Positions 28,011-63,585 of a DNA stretch of 64,000 nucleotides are shown piece after piece. Both the position numbers and the translations under genes were made by a program. The notes under the pieces are model-generated. The model saw only the letters and a program-made list of their open reading frames with translations. It was not told where the DNA came from and made no database searches. Where the stretch lies: positions 1 to 64,000 of the IMG/VR virus record IMGVR_UViG_3300028228_000176. One strand, written 5' to 3'. This DNA is from a virus. Position 1 is the first letter of the stretch; the number at the start of each line of letters is the position of its first letter.

Positions 28011-30779
28011 TTATTTAACTTCACAAGAGCCACCTCCTCCACAAGCAATCTCTCCTGCTAAATTAGTATCGTCATCCACCTCTATTATGTTAATCAAATC
28101 AACATCAACTAAATGCTTCATTCTTTCGTGATAGTCAGCTTCCGAGATGTCCTCAAATGGGGCTTGGATATAAGTTCCTCCATCATAAGGAAGTACAGAC
28201 AACCCATTGTAATGGTTTCTGTTAGCCCACATCCACTCGCCTGCTCTATCCCATTCGTCTGCTTTCAAAGAAACAGTGGCTGAAACATTATGTGTATTAG
28301 AACCTTTCCTATGTCCTGGAACCACCCACTCTTGAGCAACTTTTTTAATTCTTTCTAACAAATCAAAAGGAGACTCATCTCTCAAGATAGAACCTTTAGG
28401 CGCTTTTTGAGGTATACTAATTACAGCCGTATCGTGTGGTCTGAAATATTCGTCTTCGACTAACTCTGGATGATTTTTACTCAAGTACTGGTACATTGAT
28501 TCATTCTTCCCTACACGTATTCTACGGATGTAATAATCGTTATGCCAAGCGTGAATACCAGAAGAAGTTCCAAGAGCAAGAGAGGTCGTCCCAGCAGGCT
28601 TTACTGTTGTTGTTCTAGCCGCTGCATTAATGCCGATTAATTTTGCAACTCTAGAGTTCTCTTTGTTCACAACCTCGGCTGCTTCTGTCATATCGTAATT
28701 AAGGACTGCTCCAGAACCAATCCCAGTCATTGATACACCAATTAAAGCGTCTTTCTCAGTAGTTTCTCTCCATATGCTTCTTAGGTAATGGAACTCTGTA
28801 TATCCCGCTTGTAATGTACCTATGAATGCAGCGTGTTTAACTCTGTTATTTAGGTCTTCTTGAGACTCAATGTTAGATGCGTTTACTTCGCATAGGTTAC
28901 AAAACTGAAAAGGTCTTAAAGCAATTTCGCAGTTATGAACAAGAACTCCGCTAGAGTTAAGATAGTTGTCGTCGTCTGTCTTAGTTAGTATATAAAAGTT
29001 TTCGTTATCTTCAACGGTGAGGTCATAAACATCTTCTTTTTCTCCAGTGTAAACTAATTCCGTAACATAAACAGCTTCTGATAAATCAACGTTTATATCT
29101 TCTTTAGCATACGAGTCGTATTCTTCTTTGTGTTTGCGGTTCCAATCAATTAGAGTTTTTTCTATTTTGTCGGTACTCCAACCCCATCTTTTCCCGTTTG
29201 CCGCTATACTATTCCTAGACCCTATCAATTGACGGTGTCTCTTGTTTAGTTTGTGAACTGGATTTCCCATCCCATTCATATTCAATGCCCTCTTTTTTAA
29301 GTTGTCCTTCGCTAGTATCAACTCAAGATTTTCTAGTTTATCATTTGTTGAGTCTTCGTCAATATGGTCTATGTTTCTGCTGTTGTTATAACTTCCATTG
29401 TGAAACTCCCACATCATTCTATACTGCTTAGAATAGCCATTGGATTTAGAGTTTATATGTCGGTATGACTTTTTATTATTCTTGTTGCTAAAAGAAAAGA
29501 ATTTCTCCAGCTCCAATCCTACAGAATCTTTTGCTTCAACCCAACCTCCTGAAGGTAATGCTAACCTATGGTCGTCAGTACACTTAAACTTTGATCCATC
29601 CGAAAGACAAACCTCAACAGTTTCTTTGTAACCATTGTGATAAGCAACCGCTTGTTTTATCTCTGACTTCCAACCTTGGAATTTATTGTCATAAACAAAT
29701 ATTTTATTCGTATATTTTTCTCTTGCTGAATAAACAGGAAACGACTCCTTCCCTTGAGACTCTTCCGCCAACTGAGCTATTGTAACTCCGTTTCTTCCAT
29801 CAGCAGTAGCGACTATTGTATCTCCTGAAAAACAACAAGGATTTGTTCCCCAATCTTTGTCGTTGTTAAAATAAATTCCTGGCTCCCCAGCATTGCTAAG
29901 TTCAACACGTTTCCATAAATTCATAAAGAACTCTTCAGTAACTTTGTGTCTCATTAATACAGCAGAGTTGTTTGCTCTACCTCTTTGCGGATTTGATTCC
30001 CACCAACTGCCAGACTTACAACTAATCATATCATCATCATCAGCAGAAAACAAAGCAATTAATGCAGCTCTTCTTATGCCTCCAGCTAAGACTGCATCGG
30101 CAATATGACAAACAATATCGTGAGTTTCTACGGTAGTTAAATTCTCTCCATCTTTTTTAGAGTCAAGAACTGCTGTGATATTGAACACGCATTCTTTTAA
30201 TGGCTGAGGGCCTGGAGCTTTGCCGCCTGACGTAACTAGCTGTGCACCCTTTGGTCTAATGTCTGAGTAATCAAAGTCAACTTTAGAGTTTCTTTTGTCA
30301 CCCATATAAGACTTCATTAATACTTTTATGGCATCGGCCCAGCCTTCAATTGAATCTCCAATTAAAAACCTTTTAGTTCTTTTAGAATGAGGTTTGCTTA
30401 TAGAAGGTAGTTGGCTAACGTGATGATTTTGCACTGAGTACCCTACTCCAGTTCCACCAAGAAGTAGAAACATAATCTCATTGAAGGAATCGACACTATC
30501 AATAGGTAGGTATGCGCAATTATAAACTCTGTTAGGAGATATCTCTATCGACTTACCTCCAAATTGTAACGACCTCATTGAAGGTAGAATTTTTTTGTCG
30601 TATACTAACTCGTAAGCTTCGTCAATTTGTTTTTCTAATTTTGGGTACTTCTTAACGTGCATTGCTTTGTTGCGGTCAACAAGTTCTGACCACGTTTCTC
30701 TTCTGTTTAACTCTGGCACAAATTTAGCATATTTCATGTATACTGTAATATCTGACAGGATTTTATTTGATTTCTCCAT
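28011..30779 (-). CDS. nrdJ: B12-dependent (class II, monomeric-type) ribonucleotide reductase with intein
   Basis: 922 residues including a 301-residue intein; the spliced enzyme would be about 621. Extein features: LLLGGTGVGYSV (residues 105-116), NPC/CEIALRPFQFCNLCEVN across the splice site, PAGTTS (728-733), and a C-terminal redox pair in IACGGGGSCEVK. These fit the adenosylcobalamin-dependent RTPR family, which makes deoxynucleotides in one polypeptide without NrdB. The enzyme would raise dNTP supply during replication. The gene overlaps the upstream membrane-peptide gene by one base (TAATG), indicating translational coupling. Confidence 0.8.
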   Translation of the reverse strand: MEKSNKILSDITVYMKYAKFVPELNRRETWSELVDRNKAMHVKKYPKLEKQIDEAYELVYDKKILPSMRSLQFGGKSIEISPNRVYNCAYLPIDSVDSFNEIMFLLLGGTGVGYSVQNHHVSQLPSISKPHSKRTKRFLIGDSIEGWADAIKVLMKSYMGDKRNSKVDFDYSDIRPKGAQLVTSGGKAPGPQPLKECVFNITAVLDSKKDGENLTTVETHDIVCHIADAVLAGGIRRAALIALFSADDDDMISCKSGSWWESNPQRGRANNSAVLMRHKVTEEFFMNLWKRVELSNAGEPGIYFNNDKDWGTNPCCFSGDTIVATADGRNGVTIAQLAEESQGKESFPVYSAREKYTNKIFVYDNKFQGWKSEIKQAVAYHNGYKETVEVCLSDGSKFKCTDDHRLALPSGGWVEAKDSVGLELEKFFSFSNKNNKKSYRHINSKSNGYSKQYRMMWEFHNGSYNNSRNIDHIDEDSTNDKLENLELILAKDNLKKRALNMNGMGNPVHKLNKRHRQLIGSRNSIAANGKRWGWSTDKIEKTLIDWNRKHKEEYDSYAKEDINVDLSEAVYVTELVYTGEKEDVYDLTVEDNENFYILTKTDDDNYLNSSGVLVHNCEIALRPFQFCNLCEVNASNIESQEDLNNRVKHAAFIGTLQAGYTEFHYLRSIWRETTEKDALIGVSMTGIGSGAVLNYDMTEAAEVVNKENSRVAKLIGINAAARTTTVKPAGTTSLALGTSSGIHAWHNDYYIRRIRVGKNESMYQYLSKNHPELVEDEYFRPHDTAVISIPQKAPKGSILRDESPFDLLERIKKVAQEWVVPGHRKGSNTHNVSATVSLKADEWDRAGEWMWANRNHYNGLSVLPYDGGTYIQAPFEDISEADYHERMKHLVDVDLINIIEVDDDTNLAGEIACGGGGSCEVK
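28932..29834 (-). other. Intein with HNH homing endonuclease inside nrdJ
   Basis: Residues 316-616 of the precursor. The N-terminal splicing block starts CFSGDTIV, block B is near residues 398-405 (KCTDDHRL), and the C-terminal block ends GVLVHN followed by Cys617 of the extein. The middle carries RNIDHIDEDSTNDKLENLEL (469-488), an HNH-type endonuclease core. Insertion lies in the conserved active-site segment NPC/CEI, a typical intein site. All residues for splicing (Cys1, His-Asn, Cys+1) are present, so it is probably active. Confidence 0.85.
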
Positions 30780-34940: not shown

Positions 34941-36657
34941 TTATTCCCAAGGCATTTTTTCATCCTTCATTGTGTCTGCAACGTGAGGTATATAACAACC
35001 AGAGTTTGGCTCCCAAGTAAAGTGAGATTCAGCCCCATTGTCTCCAAGGTTTTGGAACTTAACCTTCAGTACTTTAACCTTTACAGTTCTTTCCTCGTAG
35101 TTTCTATGAACCAGCAAGCCATGATAACTTGCATCGTACCATTCTCCACCACCTTTAATGTTATACATTGTAGGTTCCTCTGTCTTTCCGCTATTGTCTT
35201 TATACATCTTAGTTGGATGCGCCACAATAAAAACAAGGACATCGTACTTCTTAGCAAACACCTCTATCTTCATAAGGTACTCCATTGTATACCTATTTAC
35301 ATCGTCACTATTGCAGTCTACATCTCTAACTTTATTAAATGGGTCAATTACTAAACACTTAATACCTTTTCGTTTCACTAATTCTGCACCTTTACGAAGA
35401 ACCGATTCAAGTGTGTAGCGCTCCATATCTATGTGGTAGTAATTGCTATTGCAATGTTCCGCTATGGTGTTCCACTTTTCTCCGCCAATATCCTCCTTGG
35501 ATGGCATACCCTCCCAAGTCTTACGCATTAGCTTATGTGCATGCAGATAAGTTGGTGCATTCTCAGGCGAAGAAAATGCTGTTTTCCAACCATAGTTTTT
35601 ATTGTATCCAACAACCATTTGGTCAACAAAATCCGACTTGCCACTTGAAGGGATGCCAGTAACAGTAATAAACTGACCAGTATAAGTTGAGAATATGTTG
35701 TCAAAGTTATCAAGACCAATCTGAAATCCCTTTTTAAAACCATTGCGAACGAAATCTGTAATGTCGTCTTCAATATCTCTAAATGTAACAACATTTTCGA
35801 GTGGTACGGGTTTTGCGTTTTTAATTCTTGATGCAAGTTTTTCTTTGCCATGCTTTATTAGATATTCATTAGCATCTTTGCAGTCCTCGAATGTAGCTAA
35901 AAAGCAAACCTCTGAACCAAGCCTTCTAATCAACTCCGCTTGCAACGCTTGCCCTGCATCGTCAGAGTCAACTGCTAAAATTATTTTTTCTTTGTCCTCG
36001 AAATAGTCAATGCAATTATCTAAGTAATCCAGATTGTTGCTATTAAGAGTTGCTCCATTAGGTACAGAAACAACGTTCTTAACACCTGCTTCGTGAAATG
36101 CTAAGACATCCATCTCTCCTTCAACAATAATGCAGTGGTCGTATCCTACTGTGCTATTTATGTTGTAAAACACTTTTTCAGCACCCTTGAATAACTTAAA
36201 ATTCTTTCGTCCATCACGATACTTTACATTGACAAGAGTGTCACCCATAAAGTAATTAAATTGTATTGTATTTTCTTCTTTGCGTGTTTGAGGCATCCAC
36301 TCAACGCCCTCAGATATTCTCATATCCGTCAAGGTATCTTTAGATATACCCCTGGTCATAAACCAATCCTCTACTTTAGTATTGTTTACCACTACAACTT
36401 CTTGCAATTCAGGTCTAACGTAAACCTTCTCCGAATTACCTTTTCTTTTGTATGTATGCAACTGAAAACTATTGCTACAGTTGTGACAAGTGCCTATCCC
36501 TCGCTCCCAATCATAAGAAGCGCAGTTGGTTTTTTATTCTCTTGTTTCCTATCGGAAGAACACAAGGGACAAGTCCCCTGCGTTTTACCTTCTGATAGGC
36601 CATATTGATTAAACTCATCTATTAAGAATCCGTTTATTTCTGATTTCTCTACGTTCA
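34941..36657 (-). CDS. Bifunctional primase-helicase, T7 gp4 / Twinkle type (one frameshift)
   Basis: About 571 residues when one missing A near 36532 is restored. The N-terminal zinc ribbon (CPLC ... CHNC) lies before the break and the rest after it. The TOPRIM domain has CIIVEGEMDVLAFHEAG and ILAVDSDDAGQ. The RecA-type helicase has Walker A GIPSSGKSD, Walker B CLVIDPFNK and the sensor VFIVAHPTKM. It would unwind DNA at the fork and make primers. No DNA polymerase is encoded nearby, so it probably works with the host replisome. Confidence 0.8.
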
Positions 36658-36680
36658 TAGGTTATGTGTTTGCGTGTTAC

Positions 36681-39482: not shown

Positions 39483-40238
39483 TTACAAATAATCTAATAC
39501 TTGGTTGCTGTCTACATTTTCTACTAATGTATCTACTGCTTGTTTCTTCAACTCCGAAACTCTAACGTGCCTACTCACACCTTGTATATCCATTATATCG
39601 GCTATCTGCAAGGCTGAGTGTTTATCACAATCCAATCCATAAGACAACCTCAAGACTTCATACTCTCTATTATCAAGGTGCTTACTCATTAACCCTTTTA
39701 AATAAGCGTTAAGGAAAGCTATGTTATAAGGCTCAGAGTTGTCAATAATCTGCTGATACATTGTTTCTCCATCTTCATCTTGAGCTACATTATCGAGAGA
39801 CAAGAATATAGAATTAAAAAACAACTGCACCATTTTTTTGTCATCAGGATTCTTTCGCATCTTATTTCGTTTCTCTTCAGGTATTCTCATAGAGCCACTA
39901 TTCATATCAATCCTTCGTCTAATAGCACCCTTGATTCTTTTACTAAGAAAAGATTTTAAAGTTTTGTCGATGTCTTCTGACTCATATAATCTAACAAAGT
40001 CTACTCTATCTACTGCTCTAACTAAAGCCTCAGCACCTATCTGTATGAGGTCGTTGATTGTTAGTATCCCAATAGCTTGTTCTGAACTTGCAAACTTCCT
40101 GGATAAGTTCTCCACTAACGGGAGGAATCTAACTATTAATTCATCCCTACTATATTCAGCGTATGGCTTATCTTCTGGCATAGATGATTTAACATCATTC
40201 TTATACCGAACGTAACTCTCTACATTATACTTTTTCAT
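39483..40238 (-). CDS. Sigma-70 family RNA polymerase sigma factor
   Basis: 251 residues. Region 2: FLPLVENLSRKFASSEQ through INDLIQIGAEALVRAVDRVD. Region 3: KSFLSKRIKGAIRRRIDMN. Region 4: LDNREYEVLRLSYGLDCDKH followed by QIADIMDIQGVSRHVRVSEL (helix-turn-helix). It would redirect host RNA polymerase, probably to phage late promoters, since no phage RNA polymerase is seen. It is transcribed with the HTH protein gene just upstream. Confidence 0.75.
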   Translation of the reverse strand: MKKYNVESYVRYKNDVKSSMPEDKPYAEYSRDELIVRFLPLVENLSRKFASSEQAIGILTINDLIQIGAEALVRAVDRVDFVRLYESEDIDKTLKSFLSKRIKGAIRRRIDMNSGSMRIPEEKRNKMRKNPDDKKMVQLFFNSIFLSLDNVAQDEDGETMYQQIIDNSEPYNIAFLNAYLKGLMSKHLDNREYEVLRLSYGLDCDKHSALQIADIMDIQGVSRHVRVSELKKQAVDTLVENVDSNQVLDYL

Positions 40239-40265: not shown

Positions 40266-40982
40266 TCATATTACATCATTGAGAGTGTCAATCTCATTCT
40301 TCAATTCATCTCCGATATTCCTTGCAATAGTTTTTCTGTTGCAAGATAGCATCGTGGCTATTCTCGTAATCGTTATCTTTTCATTCCCTTCGTTAATAGA
40401 CAACATACAATCGTATATGTTATCTTTTGTTACCACTGTACTTCTACCTATCACCGAGCCAACTATCCTTAGTTTTTCTACTTTAGTAAGGCCACACATT
40501 GGCTTAAATATTACTTTCCTAGACTTGTTTGGCGGCTGAGTTGTCATCTCTCGGTTCCCGATGTCTTCAATTGTAAACTCTATTAACGAACTTCTTAGGG
40601 CAAAGGTAGTAAAACCATTTGACTTATTACAGATAAACTTTGCAATTGTATCAAATTTTTCTTGACCCATATTTTTATTTAAGTATCTAAGGACAAACAA
40701 GTGCCATCTAAGAGACTTTAGTGTATTGATTTTATTAGGGGTTGCAAATAGCTGGAAGCATTGCATCGTACCATCTTTATAGTACCATCCCCATTCATAA
40801 GATTGTGTCGGCTCATCTGTTGTTGGCAAGCTCCTATATATAACTTGCCTTTTGTGCAAGTATTCTATTTTTCTTTCGTGCGACATTAGCTTGTTAATTA
40901 ATATACTTAATAGCCTAATGTCACATCCGCAACAAGTGAAGCCGTTTGCTATATTTTTTAAATAAAAAAATGTTTGTTTCAT
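40266..40982 (-). CDS. Helix-turn-helix protein, replication or regulatory
   Basis: 238 residues, or 206 if translation starts at the ATG at 40886. A C-terminal helix-turn-helix is likely (ITITRIATMLSCNRKTIARN, about 205-224), and the N-terminal part carries a Trp-rich fold (YEWGWYYKDGTMQCFQL). A palindromic element found at two other places overlaps codons 20-35 and the alternative start, suggesting autoregulation or a replication-initiator role. I do not recognise the family. Confidence 0.5.
   Translation of the reverse strand: MKQTFFYLKNIANGFTCCGCDIRLLSILINKLMSHERKIEYLHKRQVIYRSLPTTDEPTQSYEWGWYYKDGTMQCFQLFATPNKINTLKSLRWHLFVLRYLNKNMGQEKFDTIAKFICNKSNGFTTFALRSSLIEFTIEDIGNREMTTQPPNKSRKVIFKPMCGLTKVEKLRIVGSVIGRSTVVTKDNIYDCMLSINEGNEKITITRIATMLSCNRKTIARNIGDELKNEIDTLNDVI
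40879..40925. promoter_or_regulatory. Palindromic element, copy 1
   Basis: Arms TGCGACATTAGC and GCCTAATGTCACA (near-complementary) around a 22-bp A/T-rich centre. The same design occurs at 49362-49410 and 53107-53154, the former matching this copy (read on the minus strand) at about 40 of 49 bases. It overlaps the possible start codon at 40886. Confidence 0.65.
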
Positions 40983-41712: not shown

Positions 41713-42366
41713 TTATTTTCTTATTGATACATAAGCTGCATCTATTAAATTCATTAGTGAACTCTTAAAAGCTATTGACGAAGACTTACCTCCAATACTC
41801 CATACATTCAACTCGCTAATAGTATACTCCCTATCGTAAGTTTTCCAATCGTATATCGTGTAGTAATAATCCCCAAATCTTACAATCCATTCAACGCTAC
41901 TCTTCTCTCCTTCCTCAAACGTCTGCGTGGGCTGTCCTAGCGCCTCTACTAACTCAAAATACTTAACACCTCTTAGTGTATCAACCTTGCTGCTACCCTT
42001 CCACATATCGCTTGTAATTTCGTCCTGTAATATAGTCTTTATATTGAAAATATAATTATTGATATTACATAGCTCAGGGTTCGTTTCTACAATGGTTTCA
42101 ATATCGTGTCTCATCTCTCTATCTGTCTCACACAAGTCTTTCATTTTTGAAATGTTATTTATCACTGAAGAATGGTTCCTACTAAGGTAAACACCCATCA
42201 TTTTTAATGTTGACCTTGTGTATGTTCTTGCTAAGGTACAAAACATTTGCCTGGCTGTAACTAATTCTCTACTTCTGTTTGGCGATAGTACTTCGTTTTT
42301 ATTAAGACCGTAGTATTTACATACTATTGTCATTATGCTGTCTAATGATTCTAATTCTCTACTCAT
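41713..42366 (-). CDS. DnaA domain IV-containing protein
   Basis: 217 residues. The first 80 match the DNA-binding domain IV of DnaA: VCKYYGLNKNEVLSPNRSRE, LVTARQMFCTLARTYT and YLSRNHSSVINNISKM, the last corresponding to the signature GRDHSTV. The AAA+ ATPase domain is absent. The second half (about 125-217) is a separate beta-rich domain with KSSVEWIVRFGDYYYTIYDW. It probably binds the phage origin, perhaps the 20-bp iterons at 52.9 kb, and recruits host replication proteins. Confidence 0.65.
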   Translation of the reverse strand: MSRELESLDSIMTIVCKYYGLNKNEVLSPNRSRELVTARQMFCTLARTYTRSTLKMMGVYLSRNHSSVINNISKMKDLCETDREMRHDIETIVETNPELCNINNYIFNIKTILQDEITSDMWKGSSKVDTLRGVKYFELVEALGQPTQTFEEGEKSSVEWIVRFGDYYYTIYDWKTYDREYTISELNVWSIGGKSSSIAFKSSLMNLIDAAYVSIRK

Positions 42367-47946: not shown

Positions 47947-48126
47947 TTATATATTTTTAATTTGTTTAATTGCTTCAGACCTTAATTCGTCTGCTGAAGT
48001 TTTACCGTTTAATTTTTCATAAGAGTGTATCCAATCCAGGACTTTAAAAACTTGGTCGTGACTTTCACAAATTCTTATCTTATTAACGATGTTGTTGTAT
48101 TCTATTTGATTCCTACCTCTTCGCAT
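47947..48126 (-). CDS. Very small helical protein
   Basis: 59 residues (MRRGRNQIEYNNIVNKIRIC ... SEAIKQIKNI). It overlaps the end of the upstream gene by 14 bp and ends 2 bp before the next gene, so it fits an operon. Basic N-terminus, helical. Unknown function. Confidence 0.5.
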   Translation of the reverse strand: MRRGRNQIEYNNIVNKIRICESHDQVFKVLDWIHSYEKLNGKTSADELRSEAIKQIKNI

Positions 48127-48370
48127 TGTCTATGTTTTCGTTAATAACTTCCGTTAGTTCTTCGTAATTAACGCAAGACAAAAAAGACTTTGCGTACAAT
48201 TCAACTAAATCAAAATCCTCAGTTTTGTTTTTAAAAAGAGATTCTCTAGTAATTTGCTGAATGTCGTTTGAATTTACTTTGTCTTTAAATTCTCGAAACC
48301 TTAGTATGTCAGTCCATACGCACCACGTTTCGTAATTAAGGTGCTCGATGTTAGCTCTTACTTCTTCCAT
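48113..48370 (-). CDS. Small acidic early protein
   Basis: 85 residues (MEEVRANIEHLNYETWCVWT ... INENIDNAKR), helical and acidic. Overlaps the next gene. No family recognised. Confidence 0.5.
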   Translation of the reverse strand: MEEVRANIEHLNYETWCVWTDILRFREFKDKVNSNDIQQITRESLFKNKTEDFDLVELYAKSFLSCVNYEELTEVINENIDNAKR

Positions 48371-48473
48371 AATGTTTATTTATTAGGTTTTAATGTGTTT
48401 ATCTTTGGTAAATGTAAGCATTTTATATTAAATAAGATGTATATATTTACATTAATGTGTTCATAGTGTTATT

Positions 48474-48692
48474 TTAAACTCGGCAGCCTTTATTGGTTGT
48501 CGGGTTTTTTTGTGGTTTAATTTTTTGAATGTTTCTTATAACATTGTTGTATTCCATAATAATTTTTTTCGCCTTCAACACGTGCTCACTTAATACGTCT
48601 TGTATGTAGTTTTTTAAGTCTTTATTTGCTTTAACCGCTAATATCTTTAACGGTTGCACATCTTCTATTTTTATATCTATAAGTTTTTTCAT
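48474..48692 (-). CDS. Small ribbon-helix-helix / antitoxin-like protein
   Basis: 72 residues as read. The first 44 (MKKLIDIKIEDVQPLKILAV and KDLKNYIQDVLSEHVLKAKK) look like the short helical proteins often annotated as antitoxin-like. The rest is translated from the 35-bp repeat and a hairpin and may not be real coding; one indel in the A-run near 48565 would end the protein earlier. No toxin partner seen. Confidence 0.45.
   Translation of the reverse strand: MKKLIDIKIEDVQPLKILAVKANKDLKNYIQDVLSEHVLKAKKIIMEYNNVIRNIQKIKPQKNPTTNKGCRV
48514..48548 (-). repeat. 35-bp dispersed repeat, copy 3
   Basis: Two mismatches to copy 2. Unlike the other copies it is not next to an attC-like site, so it may be an unoccupied target or the upstream border of the array. 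Next to it a plus-strand hairpin (CTCGGCAGCC / GGTTGTCGGG) followed by seven T at 48480-48511 looks like a terminator. Confidence 0.8.
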
Positions 48693-48943
48693 AATCTAAA
48701 GTTTAATCCTAATCTTAAATCTTCGTTTGCTTTTTTAATATCTTCTAATTGTGCTTTTTTTGTTTTGTAAACTTTTACTAATGCACCAAAAACTTTTACA
48801 ACTTTATTTTTTAATAAGAACTTATTTTTTAATTCGTATGCTTCATCTTCGTTTTTAGTTACTAATAAAACTTTTTTATAAGTGTTGTTTACTACTATTG
48901 TAAAACCTTCTTTTCTTAAATCTTGTGCTTCTTGAATTGTCAT
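48689..48943 (-). CDS. Small early protein
   Basis: The start at 48943 (MTIQEAQDLRKEGFTIVVNN) is chosen because a promoter-like -7 box lies 29 bp upstream, inside the longer frame from 49000. 84 residues, basic, alpha/beta (KKVLLVTKNEDEAYELKNKF). Unknown function. The stop overlaps the next gene's start. Confidence 0.55.
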   Translation of the reverse strand: MTIQEAQDLRKEGFTIVVNNTYKKVLLVTKNEDEAYELKNKFLLKNKVVKVFGALVKVYKTKKAQLEDIKKANEDLRLGLNFRL

Positions 48944-48971
48944 AATTTCTAACGCTTTAATTATTATACTG

Positions 48972-48979
48972 CAAATATA
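48972..48979 (-). promoter_or_regulatory. Leftward promoter, -7 box
   Basis: TATATTTG on the minus strand matches the Bacteroidota -7 consensus TAnnTTTG, with TTG about 20 bp further upstream as a possible -33 element. Confidence 0.6.
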
Positions 48980-49057
48980 CATTGTATATATTATATACAC
49001 AAGTATTATATAATAATAATTATAAATGTTTTGTTTTTATTTATACGTGTACAGCAT

Positions 49058-49282
49058 TCAGTTTAATACTTGTAAGTAAAGATACGACACTTTGTTAAAC
49101 TCAGTGTTAAATACCCTAAAGTCCTTCATGCTTGCAATAGCACTTGATACGCTATCAAATCCCAGGTCTTTAGCAAACCTTAGTTTTCTCATATAGTAGC
49201 TGAATGCTATAATATCTTTTAGTTGTTTAGACTTGTGGTCATAGTTGTCGATCCCTTCGTCTCTTTTGTTTGTCTTTTTCAT
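49058..49282 (-). CDS. Small helical early protein
   Basis: 74 residues (MKKTNKRDEGIDNYDHKSKQ ... VSYLYLQVLN), helical and basic. The 168 bp upstream hold a palindromic element (49362-49410), so expression may be controlled by it. Unknown function. Confidence 0.5.
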   Translation of the reverse strand: MKKTNKRDEGIDNYDHKSKQLKDIIAFSYYMRKLRFAKDLGFDSVSSAIASMKDFRVFNTEFNKVSYLYLQVLN

Positions 49283-49361
49283 AATAGTTTCTTATTTGGT
49301 AGCCTTGTGTTTCCTTTAGGGCTGTATTAATTTTTTATAAAAAAATAAAGGTTTTCCAATA

Positions 49362-49410
49362 GTGGGACAATAGGGTATTAAGTTATATAATTAACAAGCT
49401 AATGTCGCAC
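49362..49410. promoter_or_regulatory. Palindromic element, copy 2
   Basis: GTGGGACAATAGGG ... GCTAATGTCGCAC around an A/T-rich centre, about 40 of 49 bases like copy 1 read on its minus strand. It lies in the intergenic space between two leftward genes. Confidence 0.65.
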
Positions 49411-49450
49411 TATTTTTACAATGATATTAGCATCGTAAAAAGGAGGTATT

Positions 49451-49687
49451 TTATTTTTTAAGTTTAACGACAAAGGAATTAAACCCCCTTGCTATAAATG
49501 TTTCTTCTTCCATCGAAAGTAACTTAACTCTAAATACTTCGTCATTTAGATAGCTTACTTCGTCAATTTTTGGGTATTTTTTCGTGGTATCCCATTCCGC
49601 ACCTATTGGTATAGTTCCGCTTCCGTCTCTTTTTATGAAACTTATAAAATCTAATTTTTTGCCTTTCTTTTTCATGTTATTTGTCAA
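49451..49687 (-). CDS. Small early protein
   Basis: 78 residues, basic N-terminus (MTNNMKKKGKKLDFISFIKR), then a beta-rich part (DEVSYLNDEVFRVKLLSMEE). It overlaps the upstream gene by 11 bp. Looks like a small single-domain protein; family unknown. Confidence 0.5.
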   Translation of the reverse strand: MTNNMKKKGKKLDFISFIKRDGSGTIPIGAEWDTTKKYPKIDEVSYLNDEVFRVKLLSMEEETFIARGFNSFVVKLKK

Positions 49688-49901
49688 TTAATATAAAACC
49701 ATACTTTTCTTTGTAATCATCCTGGTCATGCTCACCGTAAAATTCTTTAGTAACGCCACCAAAGGAAACGTCTGACGAGCTTTCGACTTCTATTGATAGT
49801 GTTCCCTCAAAGCAGCCTCTGTACTTCGTTAGATGACACGTATCGACATTAATTATTTTATTGTGGTATAGTATTTCGTCGGTTATTTTTATATGTACCA
49901 T
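49677..49901 (-). CDS. Small early protein
   Basis: 74 residues, beta-rich (MVHIKITDEILYHNKIINVD; GCFEGTLSIEVESSSDVSFG), acidic. The end overlaps the next gene. No recognised family. Confidence 0.5.
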   Translation of the reverse strand: MVHIKITDEILYHNKIINVDTCHLTKYRGCFEGTLSIEVESSSDVSFGGVTKEFYGEHDQDDYKEKYGFILIDK

Positions 49902-49922
49902 AATTGTATTTGTTAAGTTTTT

Positions 49923-50171
49923 TTAATAAAGTTCATCAATCATTTTTAAATACTTTTTCGGCAACTTGTCGTAAGATATAATTGACTGGGTGCTTCTCTG
50001 GCTGTTAATATAAACTTCTTTTATTACAAAGTTGTTTAAAGTATTGCTTGCATCGAATAAAATTAAATCGCCTAGAGTTAAAACGCCTTCCCTTAGCAAA
50101 AGAAACTCACCTCCTTTACTTATGTATCTTTGTATTAATTCGTCTAATTTTGAACAACTTATTGTTTTCAT
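49923..50171 (-). CDS. Small early protein
   Basis: 82 residues (MKTISCSKLDELIQRYISKG ... KYLKMIDELY), mixed alpha/beta. Unknown function; operon gene. Confidence 0.5.
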   Translation of the reverse strand: MKTISCSKLDELIQRYISKGGEFLLLREGVLTLGDLILFDASNTLNNFVIKEVYINSQRSTQSIISYDKLPKKYLKMIDELY

Positions 50172-50190
50172 AATTTCTATTTTTTAAGTG

Positions 50191-50499
50191 TTAATAAGCT
50201 GAAAATTGATGCGTTTCAAAATGTAGGTCTTGATATTTGTCTTTTAGTTCGTGGTATTCGTTTTCTATAAAATCCTCAAAATCGTGAAAATATTCGTTCC
50301 AGTCTAGACCGTTTCTTTTTTCCCATTCGTTAAACTCTTGTTTTTTAGCTTCAGAATTTACTACTGCTAACCAGTCTTTATGGATTGTCACTAATTTGTT
50401 AATTCCTTTAATTAAGCTATCTAAATTTTGATAGTTTACGGCATTTTTAACGCTTTCAATTTTCTTTTTGTATTCGCTTTGGATGTTTAAATTTTTCAT
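50191..50499 (-). CDS. Helical early protein
   Basis: The ATG at 50499 (MKNLNIQSEYKKKIESVKNA) is chosen, since the 16 codons before it are a Lys/Thr-only run from the leader. 102 residues, helical, acidic (NEYFHDFEDFIENEYHELKD). Unknown function. Confidence 0.5.
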   Translation of the reverse strand: MKNLNIQSEYKKKIESVKNAVNYQNLDSLIKGINKLVTIHKDWLAVVNSEAKKQEFNEWEKRNGLDWNEYFHDFEDFIENEYHELKDKYQDLHFETHQFSAY

Positions 50500-50530
50500 T
50501 TTCTTAGTTTTTATTTTTGTGTTTTGTGTT

Positions 50531-50776
50531 TTAGTTTTTTCTGTCATGTTTAGCCTTTTTGACTATGTTATCAATATTGGCGTTAAAAACATCTTTTGCA
50601 CTTTGGATTTTGCTGTTAAGAGACTCTTCAAATTGCTTTTTTATGCCTTCTTTTGTTAATTGGTAGTCCCTTAGATTGCAGCTAACTTCCAACAATAAGC
50701 AGTCAAAAGAATAGCTATCCAGTATAGCTTGTGAGGTTTCGTAATTACTATTTAAATTTACGTTTGAATAATCCAT
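50531..50776 (-). CDS. Helical early protein
   Basis: 81 residues (MDYSNVNLNSNYETSQAILD; FEESLNSKIQSAKDVFNANI), probably a helical bundle or short coiled coil. A GTGTTT microsatellite lies 15 bp before its start. Unknown function. Confidence 0.5.
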   Translation of the reverse strand: MDYSNVNLNSNYETSQAILDSYSFDCLLLEVSCNLRDYQLTKEGIKKQFEESLNSKIQSAKDVFNANIDNIVKKAKHDRKN

Positions 50777-50790
50777 CTTTTTAGTTTTTA

Positions 50791-50820
50791 GTGTTTGTGT
50801 TTGTGTTTGTGTTTGTGTTT
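50791..50820. repeat. Hexanucleotide microsatellite
   Basis: Five perfect GTGTTT units between two leftward genes, ending right at the upstream gene's stop. Slippage could change spacing of the leader before the 50531-50776 gene. Confidence 0.85.
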
Positions 50821-51195
50821 TTAAATTATGTTTATCGCTCCTGAATTATCGCTTTTAACTAAACCGTTTTCCTTCATACCTGCTTCGCTGCTTGCCGTCT
50901 TGAAAATTGCCGCTTTAAGCTCCTCATTTTCTTCTTTGCTTAGTTGTATTGTTACTAATTTATCAAAGCTCAGGTGCATGAAGTAAGAACCTCCTGGGCG
51001 ACTTTTGCTCAATTCGATTAAACCGATTTCGGGGTTGAAAATTCCTATTCTTTTACTGCTTTGAATTTTTACGGTTTTGTCTTCTTTGCTTATTGGATAG
51101 CAGACAAAATTTTGCTCACCTCTATGTCCTTTCGCTTTTAAGTCAAATTGAATGGTTCCCATTATTGACTTTTTTATATTTGTAATTATTTCCAT
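50821..51195 (-). CDS. Early protein, unknown function
   Basis: 124 residues (MEIITNIKKSIMGTIQFDLK), a beta-rich core (GEQNFVCYPISKEDKTVKIQ; RIGIFNPEIGLIELSKSRPG) and a helical end. An alternative start is the ATG at 51162. Starts 4 bp after the upstream stop. No family recognised. Confidence 0.55.
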   Translation of the reverse strand: MEIITNIKKSIMGTIQFDLKAKGHRGEQNFVCYPISKEDKTVKIQSSKRIGIFNPEIGLIELSKSRPGGSYFMHLSFDKLVTIQLSKEENEELKAAIFKTASSEAGMKENGLVKSDNSGAINII

Positions 51196-51199
51196 GTTT

Positions 51200-51365
51200 C
51201 TAGTTTTTAGTGTTACTTCTTTCGTACATTCCTATTCCTTTTATGGTCAAATCATCATCGTATAAATTTATCCAATGCCAGGCAACATTTACTGAATTAA
51301 TACTTGCTTCCTTCCATTGTCCATTTTGGATTGTAAAGAATTTTTTATTTTAGTTTCTTTTTCAT
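51200..51365 (-). CDS. Very small protein (one frameshift)
   Basis: About 55 residues: KKFFTIQNGQWKEASINSVN followed by VAWHWINLYDDDLTIKGIGM, after a start at MKK with one base missing in the A-run near 51355. The sequence is coherent to the TAG at 51200. Unknown function. Confidence 0.4.
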
Positions 51366-51384
51366 CTTTTTATTTTTATTGTTA

Positions 51385-51594
51385 TCAATTGTAATCATTT
51401 TTTAAAAGTTTATTTAGTTTGTTTTCAAATGGTGTGAATGATTTTGATATATGTACAATTTCACCGTTCAGCCATATTTTAAAAGTTAGTAAGTATTCAC
51501 CTGGATACCTGCCAAATTCGACTAATAAAATTCTGTTTTCGTTACTAAAGTCGATGTTTTCCCCTTTAATTAGTCTGTTTTTTAAATCTTTCAT
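51385..51594 (-). CDS. Small early protein
   Basis: 69 residues (MKDLKNRLIKGENIDFSNEN; EYLLTFKIWLNGEIVHISKS), beta-rich, basic end. Leader TAAAAACTAAAC-like before ATG as in neighbours. Unknown function. Confidence 0.45.
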   Translation of the reverse strand: MKDLKNRLIKGENIDFSNENRILLVEFGRYPGEYLLTFKIWLNGEIVHISKSFTPFENKLNKLLKNDYN

Positions 51595-51606
51595 TTTGTT
51601 TAGTTT

Positions 51607-51879
51607 TTAAAAGTTTTGTTTTATGGATTCTTCAAAATTGAAGTTGTATACTTCTTCTTCATTAGCTTCATTTTCTAGTTCTGTTAAGTCTGAATCATTC
51701 CAGTAGAAAACAGTAATACTATTAAAAAACTCAATAAAAGATTCTGTTTTTTCACCTTGAAATTCACTCATAATGCATTCTATTATATTTTCAAGTTCGT
51801 AAATTGTAGAAACCTCTAATGCGTGGCAATAGTTACCGTTTCTGCTTTCTAATATTTTATTTAAAATTACGTTTTTCAT
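51607..51879 (-). CDS. Small acidic early protein
   Basis: 90 residues, very acidic (FYWNDSDLTELENEANEEEV), helical. Unknown function; such acidic early proteins are sometimes DNA mimics, but nothing here proves it. Confidence 0.5.
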   Translation of the reverse strand: MKNVILNKILESRNGNYCHALEVSTIYELENIIECIMSEFQGEKTESFIEFFNSITVFYWNDSDLTELENEANEEEVYNFNFEESIKQNF

Positions 51880-51895
51880 CTTTTTAGTTTTTAAA

Positions 51896-51991
51896 TTATG
51901 ACTTTGTCAATATTATAGTTATTGTAATTATATCGAATATAATTATTGATAAAAATAATGTTTTTAATATCTTAAATGTTAATTTTTTCAT
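51896..51991 (-). CDS. 31-residue membrane peptide
   Basis: MKKLTFKILKTLFLSIIIFD followed by IITITIILTKS: one transmembrane helix after a Lys-rich start. It has the same type of A-rich leader as the neighbouring genes and fits between two of them. Unknown function. Confidence 0.4.
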   Translation of the reverse strand: MKKLTFKILKTLFLSIIIFDIITITIILTKS

Positions 51992-51995
51992 CTTT

Positions 51996-52169
51996 TCAAC
52001 TTGTTATTGTTCCATTTACATTAATTGTCACGCTGAAGTCTCCATCTTTATCACTGCATATAACCCCAATAGATTTGTCAGAATAAAAACCATAATCCCC
52101 AACTTTTAAAAGGCAAAAATTGTTTTTTAAATTATACAAGGCTTCTATTTGTTTTGAATTTAATTTCAT
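51996..52169 (-). CDS. First leftward early gene, small protein
   Basis: 57 residues (MKLNSKQIEALYNLKNNFCL; DKDGDFSVTINVNGTITS), alpha then beta. It directly follows the promoter-like sequence at 52209-52216, so it is probably the first gene of the leftward early operon. Unknown function. Confidence 0.5.
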   Translation of the reverse strand: MKLNSKQIEALYNLKNNFCLLKVGDYGFYSDKSIGVICSDKDGDFSVTINVNGTITS

Positions 52170-52208
52170 AATTTTTTAAATTTAATTTTATACTTTTTTT
52201 GTTCGAGG

Positions 52209-52216
52209 CAAAGATA
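52209..52216 (-). promoter_or_regulatory. Leftward early promoter, -7 box
   Basis: TATCTTTG on the minus strand fits TAnnTTTG and lies 40 bp before the first leftward gene. A TTG lies about 23 bp further upstream. No other clear -7 box exists between here and the divergent region's iterons, so this is the best candidate for the main early promoter. Confidence 0.55.
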
Positions 52217-52860
52217 GTACAAAAGAAATGTAATTGATTCAATTATTAGACTAACGGCTAAATATCTTCGACCAATGATATAATTTTGTCGACAAACGAC
52301 GTTTTGGTCCTTCGTTAGTAAATTATAGTACTATGTAATGCACAGTAATGACAAACGTAATGGAATGGAGTATTACCTGCATTGGGGCCTTCATAAAGTA
52401 TATTAAAGTGAATTAATATAACATAAACAGAAAATACAACTTGTATAAACATACCAAGGTAGACGTTTGGGCTGTTATTATAACAAGGCAAACAAGACAT
52501 AAAACAATAGACATGCTAGCCAGGGAATGAAGCAGCCCGGAAACTTAGATATGTTAACAGGTTTTACAACTTCAGTAACAGTAAAAAGTGCTGGTTAATT
52601 AGTAGGGTTAAAAGTTAGTCAGGAAGGTAGTTTGAGTATCCCCTCCCTCAGCCCTGTCATACCGTACGTTACAAAGCATCACTTAAAGTATTACTTTAGG
52701 TAAAAGGTAGATAGTATGGAGGAAAAAGGTGAATATATTGGTGTAATATATAAAAAGGTAAAAATAATATTCCTTTTTTTGTAAAACACTATGGGGGGTT
52801 TGATTTGGAAAACGTTTTCGGTTTTAGTTTGCGTATTGTTTAGCGTAGTATAACCCCCAA

Positions 52861-52960
52861 TCCCTATATATCTAACACAATCCCTATATATCTAACACAA
52901 CCCCTATATATCTGACGTAATCTGTAAATATATCACATAATCCATACATATATGGAAAGA
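52861..52960. repeat. 20-bp iterons
   Basis: Five head-to-tail units of exactly 20 bp: two identical (TCCCTATATATCTAACACAA), a third with three changes, and two more diverged units. The two-turn period places each unit on the same DNA face, as in origins bound by initiator proteins. The DnaA domain IV protein or HTH protein of this phage are candidate binders. Confidence 0.8.
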
Positions 52961-53106
52961 GTTTCTATAAAGGCTACCCCATGTTGTTTTAGGGGGGTAT
53001 CTTATGACGATGCTTAGTGTGTGGTGTTATGCATTAGGGGGTATAAATTTTTTATTAAAAATAAATAGTGGATAAATCAGTGTTATATGCCACTGCATTT
53101 CAAATA

Positions 53107-53154
53107 GTGCGACATTAGCCTATTTAGATTATATTGCACAACCTAATGTCCCAC
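53107..53154. promoter_or_regulatory. Palindromic element, copy 3
   Basis: GTGCGACATTAGCC ... ACCTAATGTCCCAC around a 20-bp centre, next to the iterons and upstream of the rightward genes. It shares arms with the elements at 40879-40925 and 49362-49410. Confidence 0.65.
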
Positions 53155-53270
53155 TTTATGAGTTTGATATTAGGTGTTAGTTTTACAACTTGGATTACAT
53201 TGTATTTTGGTAATTAATTAGTATTATGTGTAAGTATATAAGTAGTAATATCGACATTAAAATAGTATGT

Positions 53271-53516
53271 ATGCGTAAACAGAAACTAAGTGCTGAGGCA
53301 TCGGCAAAGAAAGCTACTCGTGACCTTGCTATTGCTAAGACACCTGCAAGAAGGGAGAAGAAGAGGGAGAATCAGGTTAAGCGTAGAGAAGTTATAAAAG
53401 AAAGGGGTAAGTTGTTTTTAGTTGGTAAGGACTATGACCACAAGGATGGTAAGTTTAAGTCTGTTAAAGCAAATAGAGGGAATGATGGGAATGGTACTAA
53501 GAAAGAAAAGAAATAG
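53271..53516 (+). CDS. Small very basic protein
   Basis: The ATG at 53271 (MRKQKLSAEASAKKATRDLA) is preferred; the upstream frame from 53226 reads through an unlikely leader. 81 residues, about one third Lys/Arg, ending KKEKK. First gene of the rightward unit. Possibly DNA- or capsid-associated; no family assigned. Confidence 0.5.
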   Translation: MRKQKLSAEASAKKATRDLAIAKTPARREKKRENQVKRREVIKERGKLFLVGKDYDHKDGKFKSVKANRGNDGNGTKKEKK

Positions 53517-53518
53517 TT

Positions 53519-53704
53519 ATGAAGGGAGTTGCACACTATAAGAAAGATGGTACGATTTACAAAGGTAAGGGTACACATAAAGACGCTAAAGGTAAGTTAA
53601 TGTCTGGTAAGAAACACGCAGCGTCTAGTAAGTTCTTGTTTCATATGGAGGAGTTACCAAAGGCTGTGCAAGCAAAAACTAAAAAAGAAATAAAACAAAC
53701 ATAA
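53519..53704 (+). CDS. Small basic late protein
   Basis: 61 residues: MKGVAHYKKDGTIYKGKGTH then LMSGKKHAASSKFLFHMEEL. This HYKKDG ... GTHKD...SGKKH pattern is familiar from short basic proteins of crAss-like phages. Probably a minor virion protein. Starts 2 bp after the previous stop. Confidence 0.5.
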   Translation: MKGVAHYKKDGTIYKGKGTHKDAKGKLMSGKKHAASSKFLFHMEELPKAVQAKTKKEIKQT

Positions 53705-53705
53705 A

Positions 53706-54578
53706 ATGGCATTAAATTATACATATCCAGTAAAGGGTACACCATCGTCAAATGATGAGATATTAATTATAGATAGTCAATCACCAAACATTAACGCAAC
53801 TAAGAAAGTTAGTGTTGCAAGTGTATTGGCTCTTGGTACTGGAGAAGACCCAGGAGTTCAGACATTCCAAGCTACAAATAGTACCTTTATTACATACACA
53901 CCTAATACAGCATCGACAGGTTCTGTTACATTAACTGGTGCTCTTTCAGCTACTGGTACAGCAGGTGCTACAACGTTCCTTAGAGGGGATAATACTTGGT
54001 CTACTGCTATTACCGCAGTTAGTGCTTCCATAGGCTCACCTATTAGTGTATCTACTACAAGTGGAGTTGCTACAGTAGGGTTTACTGGAGCGTTGGCTAT
54101 TGCTAATGGTGGTACAGCTTTAACAAGTGTAGGTACAAGTGGTCAAGTACTTGTTTCTAACGGTACTGCATTGGCTTATGGCACACCAACAGATACTACT
54201 AAGCTACCTTTAGCTGGTGGAGCAATGACTGGTGCTGTTACAGGTAATCAGGCAGTGACTGCGTTTAGACCATATGCAACTATTGCTGGAACATCTGTTA
54301 CATTGACAGACGCAGAGATAGGTAAATTACTTATTACATCTAGTTCAAGTACTGTAACATTGACAATACCAGCAGATGCAGCATCAACAACATTCCCTTT
54401 AGGTACTGAGATGGATTTCTTTCAGAATGGTTCAGGTACAGTTAGTGTAGTAGGTGCAGCAGGTGTTTCTATTAATGGAGTTACCGCAGGAGTTGGTGTA
54501 ACAATAACAGCCAGATATGGTGGATTATCAATAAAAACTATAGCAGCCAATACTTGGATTGCAGTAGGTAAGATATAA
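53706..54578 (+). CDS. Tail fibre / head-fibre-like protein
   Basis: 290 residues rich in Thr/Ser/Gly/Ala. Contains GTAGATTFLRGDNTWSTAIT (about 83-102) and GGTALTSVGTSGQVLVSNGT, repeat types found in many phage fibre proteins, and a C-terminal beta domain ending WIAVGKI. Likely a trimeric fibre shaft with a small head. Exact attachment (capsid or tail) is unknown. Confidence 0.6.
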   Translation: MALNYTYPVKGTPSSNDEILIIDSQSPNINATKKVSVASVLALGTGEDPGVQTFQATNSTFITYTPNTASTGSVTLTGALSATGTAGATTFLRGDNTWSTAITAVSASIGSPISVSTTSGVATVGFTGALAIANGGTALTSVGTSGQVLVSNGTALAYGTPTDTTKLPLAGGAMTGAVTGNQAVTAFRPYATIAGTSVTLTDAEIGKLLITSSSSTVTLTIPADAASTTFPLGTEMDFFQNGSGTVSVVGAAGVSINGVTAGVGVTITARYGGLSIKTIAANTWIAVGKI

Positions 54579-57420: not shown

Positions 57421-58959
57421 ATGTCTAACGGAATCGTTAAGAATCTAAACTTCGGAGACGAAGGTAAAAATAAAGTGTTTGAGGGTATCTCAAAGTTAAC
57501 ACAAGCCGTTAGTTCCACATTAGGAGCTAGCGGTAAGTGTGTAATGCTAGAGGACGGCTCAGGCAAACCATTAATTACAAAGGATGGTGTAACAGTGGCT
57601 AATGCAGTTATACTCTTAGACCCAGTAGAAAATATGGGTGCAACGCTGTTAAAAGAAGCGGCAAGGCAAACAGTTATTGAAGCAGGCGACGGAACAACAA
57701 CAGCTACGGTATTAGCACACGCAATACTAGAAGAGGCTTTTAAAAACAAAAACTATAACTCAAGAGAGATTCGCAATGGTATAAATTCTGCCGTTGACAA
57801 AGTAGTTACATACTTAGAAAGTATCTCACATAGCGTCACTGGTTCTATGTTAACTGAAGTTGCTACAATATCATCTAACAATGACGTAGAGCTTGGAGCT
57901 TTAATTGCTAAGGCTTTTGAAGACGTTGGCGAGAATGGTGTAGTTAGTATGGAAATATCTAACGACGAAGAAACATCAGTAGACATTGTAGATGGCGCTT
58001 CTATTGATAAGGGGTTAAAGAATGACCACTTTATTAATAACAAAGAAAAAGGTACTTGCGAACTTAACAATCCACTTGTATTAATTGTAGAAAGCAAAAT
58101 ACCTAATGTAAGAAAAGTTCAAGGAATTTTAGAATACGTTATTAAGAATAACAAAGAATTACTTATTATTGGAGAAGCAGATGAACAGTTAGTGACTGCT
58201 TTATCAATGAATGTAAATAAAGGTAACATCAAAGCCAATATTATTGATTCCCCAGACTTTGGAATTAATAGGAAAGAAACGCTTCAAGATTTTGCTGCCT
58301 TAACTGGCGCTACAGTGATTAACGAAGACTTGGGTGACGATATAGACCTAATTGATGTTAGCCACTTAGGTACGTGCTTAAAAGCCGTTACAACAAGAGA
58401 AGATACTGTCATTCAAGTTGAAGGCACTAACGATGCTGTTGTTGGTTTAATTAAGCAAATAAAAAAGCAGATTAAAGAAACAAAGATTAACGGAAAGAAG
58501 CACCAATTAGAAAGAAGGCTATCAAGGCTTGCTGGAAAGGTTGGTGTAATAAAAGTTGGGGCTAATTCAGAGGTTGAACTCAAAGAAAAAAGCGATAGAG
58601 TTGAAGATGCAATATGTGCAACTAAAGCAGCTATAAAAGAAGGTATTGTTCCAGGAGGAGGAATTGCTTTACTCAACGCTAGTACGATTGTTTTAGGCTT
58701 AAATGCAGGTGAAGACATTTTGCTAAAAGCTATTCAGTCTCCATTCAATGTTATTATGAAAAATGCAGGGATGGAAGACTTTGAAAAACCAACCGAAGAA
58801 GGTGTAGGATATGATGTAGTAACAGGTAAAATGGTGGAGATGATTAAGTTTGGAATTATAGACCCACTACTCGTAACTAAAAGTGCTTTGAAGAATGCTG
58901 CATCTGTAGCCAATACTATTCTTGCAACTGATTGTGTAATTAATAATCTAAGAGCATGA
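57421..58959 (+). CDS. groEL: Phage-encoded GroEL-type chaperonin
   Basis: 512 residues, slightly shorter than bacterial GroEL (about 545). Contains LITKDGVTVANAV, the ATP motif GDGTTTATV (near residue 80), a GroEL-like apical domain, and VEDAICATKAAIKEGIVPGG with the conserved catalytic Asp. The C-terminal GGM tail is absent. Probably folds the phage capsid or other virion proteins, or replaces host GroEL during infection. Overlaps the co-chaperonin gene by 4 bp. Confidence 0.9.
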   Translation: MSNGIVKNLNFGDEGKNKVFEGISKLTQAVSSTLGASGKCVMLEDGSGKPLITKDGVTVANAVILLDPVENMGATLLKEAARQTVIEAGDGTTTATVLAHAILEEAFKNKNYNSREIRNGINSAVDKVVTYLESISHSVTGSMLTEVATISSNNDVELGALIAKAFEDVGENGVVSMEISNDEETSVDIVDGASIDKGLKNDHFINNKEKGTCELNNPLVLIVESKIPNVRKVQGILEYVIKNNKELLIIGEADEQLVTALSMNVNKGNIKANIIDSPDFGINRKETLQDFAALTGATVINEDLGDDIDLIDVSHLGTCLKAVTTREDTVIQVEGTNDAVVGLIKQIKKQIKETKINGKKHQLERRLSRLAGKVGVIKVGANSEVELKEKSDRVEDAICATKAAIKEGIVPGGGIALLNASTIVLGLNAGEDILLKAIQSPFNVIMKNAGMEDFEKPTEEGVGYDVVTGKMVEMIKFGIIDPLLVTKSALKNAASVANTILATDCVINNLRA

Positions 58960-62988: not shown

Positions 62989-63585
62989 ATGAAGAGTGTT
63001 TATGATTTTATTGTAAAACCAGTCAACGGAAGATACGACAACGTTAAGAAAGTTGGAGATGTTGACCTTATAGTAAATACTAGAATTGAAGAATATAAAA
63101 GCATTAGCAAAGTTGCAGAAGTTGTAGCTTTGCCAATGTCTATTAAGACAGATATAAAAGTTGGAGATATTGTTGTTATACATCACAACATATTTAGAAG
63201 GTTTTACGATATAAGGGGTAATGAAAAAAATAGTAGAGCTTTTATTAAAGAAGATATGTACGCTTGCCCTCCAGAACAGATTTATATGTACGGAGACAAT
63301 ATACCTCATTTGGATTATTGTTTTGTTAAGCCTTTAGTAAGCCACGATATATTTTCAATTGACAAAGAAAAGCCTCTTGTTGGCATATTGAAGTTTGGAA
63401 ACAAACAACTATCAAAATTAGGTATAGAAAAAGAAGATTTAGTTTCGTTTAGACCAACATCAGAATTTGAGTTTGTTATTGACGAAGAACTATTATATTG
63501 TATGAAATTAATTAACATTGTTGCGAAACATGGACGTAAAGGAAACGAAGAGGAATATAATCCTAGCTGGGCAAGCAGCAGTTGA
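62989..63585 (+). CDS. Late protein, GroES-like fold suspected
   Basis: 198 residues. A central beta segment KVGDIVVIHHNIFRRFYDIR recalls the Cpn10 fold but lacks a mobile loop. CPPEQIYMYGDNIP and FVKPLVSHDIFSIDKEKPLV follow. The last 20 residues overlap the next gene and may be altered by an indel. Function unknown; it precedes the terminase genes. Confidence 0.45.
   Translation: MKSVYDFIVKPVNGRYDNVKKVGDVDLIVNTRIEEYKSISKVAEVVALPMSIKTDIKVGDIVVIHHNIFRRFYDIRGNEKNSRAFIKEDMYACPPEQIYMYGDNIPHLDYCFVKPLVSHDIFSIDKEKPLVGILKFGNKQLSKLGIEKEDLVSFRPTSEFEFVIDEELLYCMKLINIVAKHGRKGNEEEYNPSWASSS

What the first reader, a model, noticed from the sequence alone, without database searches (positions are those of the whole stretch)
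52861..52960. Iteron-type origin with a phage DnaA domain IV protein
Five tandem 20-bp units lie in a 1-kb divergent intergenic region. The phage encodes a DnaA DNA-binding domain without an ATPase (41713-42366) and no DNA polymerase. An origin where a DnaA-like binder recruits the host replisome is plausible and not known to me in this group.
Basis: partly seen in the sequence, partly recalled or inferred. Interest (0 to 1): 0.68.

Follow-up and report, generated by a model that had tools for sequence, protein, structure and literature searches.

The report
Conserved phage control site, possible origin
Five short repeats in a phage genome turn out to be a local expansion of a DNA element that many related, mostly uncultured phages carry once each between their two opposed gene blocks; it may be where they start copying their DNA, but the phage DnaA-like protein proposed as its partner is missing from most of these phages.

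Summary
The repeat array is real: five 20-bp units at 52858-52957, three nearly identical and two degraded, far beyond chance. The 41713-42366 protein carries a DnaA DNA-binding domain; no DnaA ATPase match was found, nor a DNA polymerase in the families that could be tested.

The proposed pairing fails. The array is the end of a ~130-bp composite element found once per genome in 22 of 23 related contigs and in 32 of 50 long contigs chosen by another gene. Only 3 of those 50 encode a DnaA domain, so 29 of 32 element carriers lack it. The element has no DnaA boxes, and 38 of 47 relatives have just one unit. GC skew follows gene strand, so the skew minimum is not evidence.

Best reading: a single-copy cis element at the divide between opposed gene blocks, most likely the replication origin (about 0.5), used by an unidentified initiator; a transcription control site is the main rival. 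A repeated palindrome beside it marks a regulon tied to an HTH protein (75 of 80 loci). No function is shown.

The parts
52752..52880 (+). Conserved core element: A-tract box (52752-52764), G-tract (52793-52798), GTTTTC box (52814-52819), TATAACCCC (52849-52857), first unit
   Evidence: nhmmer profile of relatives: 52752-52880, E 1.2e-19, one copy; positions of boxes; alignments
52858..52917 (+). Units 1-3 of the 20-bp array
   Evidence: profile scores 20.7, 20.7, 23.6 against a threshold of 8.67
52918..52957 (+). Degenerate units 4-5
   Evidence: 14/20 and 13/20 identity to unit 1; reached in 0.0000 and 0.0015 of 2000 shuffles of the downstream stretch; below the unit-profile threshold
53045..53068 (+). 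A/T-rich run downstream of the array, possible unwinding region
   Evidence: position; not exceptional in duplex stability: 13.6% of random stretches are as unstable at 30 bp
53107..53154 (.). Palindrome GTGCGACATTAGCC-N20-ACCTAATGTCCCAC before the first plus-strand gene; candidate operator
   Evidence: 36 of 47 element loci have one here
49362..49410 (.). Second copy of the palindrome, intergenic in the leftward block
40878..40926 (.). Third copy of the palindrome, at the start of the 40266-40889 gene
   Evidence: 75 of 80 relatives have one at the start of this gene
40266..40889 (-). 207-residue protein with a C-terminal helix-turn-helix (the ORF is open up to 40982); likely cognate of the palindrome
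   Evidence: alignment; model pLDDT 86.9; residues 150-206 match HTH regulators at Z 5-6
52209..52242 (-). Host-type promoter (TTG-N-TATCTTTG) for the leftward genes
   Evidence: (motif from recall), position
41713..42366 (-). 217-residue protein: DnaA domain IV (residues 9-74) plus a C-terminal domain; not linked to the element by distribution
34941..36461 (-). Primase/helicase (Toprim plus DnaB-like); an N-terminal part lies in another frame at 36494-36658
53226..53516 (+). First gene of the rightward block
   Evidence: its cluster has members in 16 contigs

Best explanation
The five units are a local expansion of a binding site that ends a ~130-bp composite element present once per genome. 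The element is most likely the replication origin of this group of phages. Proposed steps: an initiator (not identified; not, as a rule, the DnaA-domain protein) binds the unit or units and the upstream boxes; an A/T-rich stretch beside them opens; the phage primase/helicase loads; a host DNA polymerase extends. Shown here: the array, the conserved element, its single copy, its position and orientation, the primase/helicase gene, and no polymerase match in families A, C and B (PF00136). Inferred: that replication starts here, that a protein binds the units, that the A/T-rich stretch melts, and that host polymerase is used. Extra units in this phage would add binding sites; why it has them is unknown.
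For: One copy per genome in 22 of 23 contigs at E below 1e-13, nothing else above the inclusion threshold. It lies at the divergent junction in the contigs that hold both sides. In 80 loci chosen by another gene, 24 show the element, one each, all in the same orientation; in 50 long contigs 32 do, of which 31 have one match. Box spacing is nearly gap-free, and there is no consensus RNA structure on either strand. An A/T homopolymer of 6 or more follows the unit in 39 of 47, against 170 of 900 random intergenic stretches of the 22-contig set. The unit occurs two or three times in 8 of 47. Host-type promoters lie elsewhere in this phage, and 36 of 47 have a separate palindrome before the first rightward gene, so the element is less needed as a promoter. 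Weak left-half matches lie at the junctions of Cellulophaga phage phi18:3 (E 0.0099) and Flavobacterium phage elemoF (E 0.32).
Against: No measurement of replication. A single unit suffices in 38 of 47 relatives, unlike classical iteron origins. The A/T run is not within the tested span in this window, and duplex stability there is ordinary. GC skew gives no support. No initiator gene is identified. In G011 neither a plus-strand host-type -7 motif nor a palindrome was found between the element and the first rightward gene, so the element may carry a promoter there. 18 of 50 long contigs gave no element match, and MW202828 and Panino gave none of note. In the 20 loci part of the element was selected for by the search pattern.
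Confidence: 0.5

Rival explanations
1. The element is a transcription control site: a single promoter or activator site for the rightward block, read by the phage sigma-like protein (39483-40238) or another phage factor; tandem units are activator or sigma sites.
For: Fixed orientation toward the rightward block. A sigma-like protein is found in 8 of 23 contigs. G011 has its first rightward gene 82 bp after TATAACCCC, with no plus-strand host-type -7 motif and no palindrome in between. Some relatives' units contain TATATTTG, like the host -7 box.
Against: The sigma-like match is absent from G009 (56 kb) and G018, which carry the element, though those contigs may be incomplete. Single copy. 36 of 47 relatives have a separate palindrome before the first rightward gene. 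The box spacing does not fit a usual promoter (inference).
Confidence: 0.33
2. One reading: the DnaA domain IV protein binds the 20-bp units and brings the host replisome.
For: Protein and array occur together here; the recognition helix resembles DnaA (RNHSSV against RDHTTV in Salmonella DnaA); in Leeuwenhoekiella phage Arctus_1 a DnaA-domain gene follows a gene annotated DNA replication protein.
Against: 29 of 32 element-bearing long contigs lack the domain; G015 lacks it; no DnaA box in or near the units.
Confidence: 0.06
3. The DnaA-domain protein acts at the host's own DnaA boxes, hindering host initiation or freeing replisome parts, and has no role at the array. This concerns the protein, so it can hold together with the leading explanation.
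For: A DNA-binding domain without ATPase and a patchy distribution, as for an accessory gene; one DnaA box in this genome where 8.8 are expected.
Against: Over 27 genomes or records the box deficit (94 observed, 160.2 expected, ratio 0.59) is within the spread of permuted words (mean 1.00, sd 0.30, minimum 0.46). No direct evidence.
Confidence: 0.3
4. The element serves DNA packaging or another structural role.
For: A unique site in each genome.
Against: It lies about 10.9 kb from the terminase gene, at a junction of opposed gene blocks; there are no genome-end data.
Confidence: 0.06

Closest known systems
Iteron origins of plasmids and phage lambda ori
   Same: Tandem direct repeats of about 20 bp at one site, A/T-rich stretch nearby in most relatives
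   Different: One unit in 38 of 47 relatives; no initiator identified; an upstream set of boxes with nearly fixed spacing
RepA_N origin of the Vibrio satellite PLE (PMC7145576, passages read)
   Same: Repeats in a noncoding region of a phage-related element that depends on other replication proteins
   Different: There the initiator RepA and its binding to a repeat were shown; here nothing is shown and no such initiator was identified
Bacterial oriC with DnaA
   Same: A DnaA domain IV protein is encoded in this phage
   Different: No DnaA boxes at the element, no ATPase domain, and most element carriers lack the protein
Elemovirus, Baltivirus phi18:3 and Maribacter phage Panino
   Same: Related portal proteins in elemo phages and Panino, primase/helicase genes in elemoF and Panino; weak left-half element in phi18:3 and elemoF
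   Different: Panino has a DNA polymerase and a gene annotated replication initiation protein; no clear element in Panino or MW202828

Membership tests
Iteron-type replication origin | Tandem direct repeats at one site | tested here: met
   Five units in this window, three strong; but one unit in 38 of 47 relatives
Iteron-type replication origin | Repeats bound by a cognate initiator, usually encoded by the same replicon | not testable with these tools
   Binding cannot be tested; the proposed DnaA-domain partner fails co-occurrence
Iteron-type replication origin | Adjacent A/T-rich unwinding region | tested here: inconclusive
   39 of 47 relatives have an A/T run after the unit; stability not exceptional in this window
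Iteron-type replication origin | Replication starts at the site | not testable with these tools
   No read data; GC skew follows the coding strand
DnaA-dependent origin | Cluster of DnaA boxes | tested here: not met
   No TTWTNCACA (recalled motif) within 900 bp left and 420 bp right of the element in this phage; one in the genome
DnaA-dependent origin | DnaA with AAA+ domain encoded by the phage | tested here: not met
   PF00308 in 0 of 5 records searched, the own record among them; 13 of 14 controls rang
DnaA domain IV (PF08299) | Profile match above the curated cut-off | tested here: met
   63 bits against a cut-off of 31.5
Bacteroidota housekeeping promoter | TTG and TAnnTTTG boxes (recalled motif) inside the element | tested here: not met
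   None within the core in this phage; one at 52209-52242 on the minus strand
Structured RNA | Conserved, covarying base pairs | tested here: not met
   0 predicted pairs on both strands for 19 sequences; no Rfam match at 48000-54000

The most novel reading that the evidence does not exclude
A widespread group of Bacteroidota podophages starts replication at a conserved composite origin (A-tract, G-tract, GTTTTC, TATAACCCC, one or more units) read by an undescribed initiator that is neither DnaA nor one of the DnaA-domain proteins, and that origin gains or loses units like iterons.
Probability: 0.35. Interest if true: 0.62.

Novelty: new variant of a known kind. Interest (0 to 1): 0.45.

Why it matters
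In these phages no DNA polymerase was found in the families that could be tested, and no obvious initiator, so how they begin replication is open. A single-copy element conserved over many genomes gives a short, testable target for origin or early/late switch experiments. It also cautions against pairing an array with whichever DNA-binding gene the same phage carries. In nine literature searches of PMC open papers no listing described this element; I opened passages of one paper only, so this is weak evidence of absence.

Tried and rejected
GC skew as evidence for an origin: cumulative skew is lowest near 52 kb, but third-position skew is small (0.04 to 0.07 in the three well-filled classes; the fourth class, 14 minus-strand ORFs right of the element, is -0.136 and includes doubtful ORFs, and these ORFs kept positive plus-strand skew, 0.170), and inverted genes in elemoF (-0.29) and phi18:3 (-0.23) flip with gene strand. 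Rejected as uninformative.

DnaA-box depletion: not beyond permuted words. Duplex stability: not exceptional in most genomes. Conserved RNA: none. Pairing of the G-tract with AACCCC: the G-tract is a C-tract in G009, G012 and G018, against it.

PDB Foldseek had no match at E 0.001 or below; one viral match, A0A516MIB4, without a name. Only the C-terminal HTH was placed; its N-terminal part was not searched alone.

DNA polymerase family PF03175: no control rang, so no conclusion.

Full report
What was checked. The window is bases 1-64000 of a 64636-base virus record whose two ends share an identical 127 bases, so it is probably a complete circular assembly. The portal protein places it near Bacteroidota podophages: 51% to MW202828, 45% to Maribacter phage Panino, 41% to Flavobacterium elemo phages. 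Rightward genes run from 53226 through the end and on to about 25 kb; leftward genes fill roughly 25 to 52 kb.

The array. Five 20-bp units lie at 52858-52957. Unit 2 is identical to unit 1; units 3, 4 and 5 share 17, 14 and 13 of 20 bases with it. Period-20 matching reaches 63 of 80 positions, against a maximum of 43 in 300 shuffles. A near-identical contig (L003/G001, blastn 95.8%) has one unit fewer, so the number varies.

The element. Comparing the region with contigs fetched by the GroEL protein showed that some relatives keep only one unit, preceded by the same boxes. A pattern scan gave 20 stretches. A profile of the 134-bp core then found exactly one hit in each of 22 of 23 contigs and none in G022, whose junction seems not to be held (inference). 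The 22 include the loci the profile was made from. The pattern itself fixed about 18 bases of the right part, so those bases are conserved by the choice of loci; the A-tract, G-tract and GTTTTC boxes were not in the pattern, and G003 was found without it. Where a contig holds both sides, minus-strand genes lie left and plus-strand genes right, apart from small overlapping ORFs; G005, G014, G017, G019 and G021 hold under 1.3 kb of the left side and G001 little of the right.

A sample not chosen by the element. The 207-residue HTH protein (40266-40889) has 277 relatives in IMG/VR, of which 80 loci were kept. In those 80 loci, which reach at most 10 kb on each side, 24 show the core, one each and all in the same orientation. 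Of the 80, I searched whole contigs for 50: those of 50 kb or more except three already examined (G004, G010, G022), plus L137. In these, 32 of 50 have a core match; 31 have one and G061 has one strong and two weak. The same 50 gave 3 with the DnaA domain, two above the cut-off, all three among the 32. So 29 of 32 element carriers show no DnaA domain. Of the three left out, G004 has both, G010 the element only, G022 neither; with them it is 30 of 34. Contigs may be incomplete, but these are genome-sized, and G015, with identical ends, also lacks the domain.

The DnaA-domain protein. Residues 9-74 match PF08299. The recognition helix reads RNHSSV against RDHTTV in Salmonella DnaA, so DNA binding is plausible. 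Its C-terminal part aligns with a separate protein of G020. It sits near a C5 methylase gene here, one ORF between; in phi18:3 the two are adjacent. Its targets are unknown. With no DnaA boxes at the element and this distribution, I do not link it to the array.

Skew. The cumulative skew minimum coincides with the gene switch, but inverted genes flip skew with their own strand in elemoF and phi18:3.

Promoters and palindrome. A host-type promoter lies on the minus strand at 52209-52242, 640 bp left of TATAACCCC. A palindrome with 14-bp arms occurs three times here, at 53107, 49362 and 40878. In 75 of 80 HTH-protein loci a palindrome lies within -120 to +20 of that gene's start, most at -41 to -29; shuffled loci gave none. 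The protein family was found in G000, G001, G004, G010, G011, G013, G015 and G022, and each has at least two palindromes, G022's weaker one scoring 20.2 and G015's weakest 19.4. It was not found in G020, G006, G009, G012 or G018, whose best palindrome scores are 16.9 to 20.0 with other spacings. Other contigs with palindromes, such as G007 and G008, gave no match to the protein; they are short (21 and 23 kb). Inference: the HTH protein binds the palindrome. Its C-terminal 57 residues fold like HTH regulators, at modest Z of 5-6. 36 of 47 element loci have a palindrome 41 to 258 bp after TATAACCCC.

A/T run and units. I took 50 element loci from two sets (22 contigs and 28 of the 30 loci; L204 left out as the same contig as G015, L230 as a likely false hit) and dropped 3 near-duplicates, leaving 47. 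Of these, 39 have an A/T run of 6 or more at +24 to +75; random intergenic stretches of the 22-contig set show it in 170 of 900. Within the 22 contigs the count is 15 of 22, and this window is among the seven without. Unit counts in the 47, plus orientation: none above threshold in 1, one in 38, two in 7, three in 1, the last being this phage.

Replication genes. A primase/helicase is present. Polymerase family A matched in 0 of 23 and 0 of 50 records; families C and B (PF00136) matched in 0 of 5. Use of host polymerase is therefore inferred.

Verdict. The element is probably an origin, with a transcription control site as a close rival. From PMC7145576 I read passages only: it shows how depth and repeat-binding tests can settle such a question.

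Noticed in passing
40878-40926, 49362-49410, 53107-53154; L121-L200: A repeated palindrome tied to an HTH protein gene family: 75 of 80 loci have it at that gene's start. A candidate phage regulon.
   Followed up: partly
34941-36658, minus strand: The primase/helicase reading frame changes near its N-terminus compared with the near-identical contig G001; real or an assembly error.
   Followed up: partly
28011-30779, minus strand: Ribonucleotide reductase with intein-splicing and HNH endonuclease matches inside it.
   Followed up: no
57421-58959 and 62989-63585: Phage GroEL-like and GroES-like proteins.
   Followed up: no
41713-42366: The DnaA-domain protein carries a C-terminal domain that is a separate protein in G020.
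   Followed up: no
MW202828 51012-51335 and 60107-60676; G009 and G012: Some relatives carry two DnaA-domain genes.
   Followed up: no
13642-15357: C-terminal match to the crAss-like phage muzzle protein domain.
   Followed up: no
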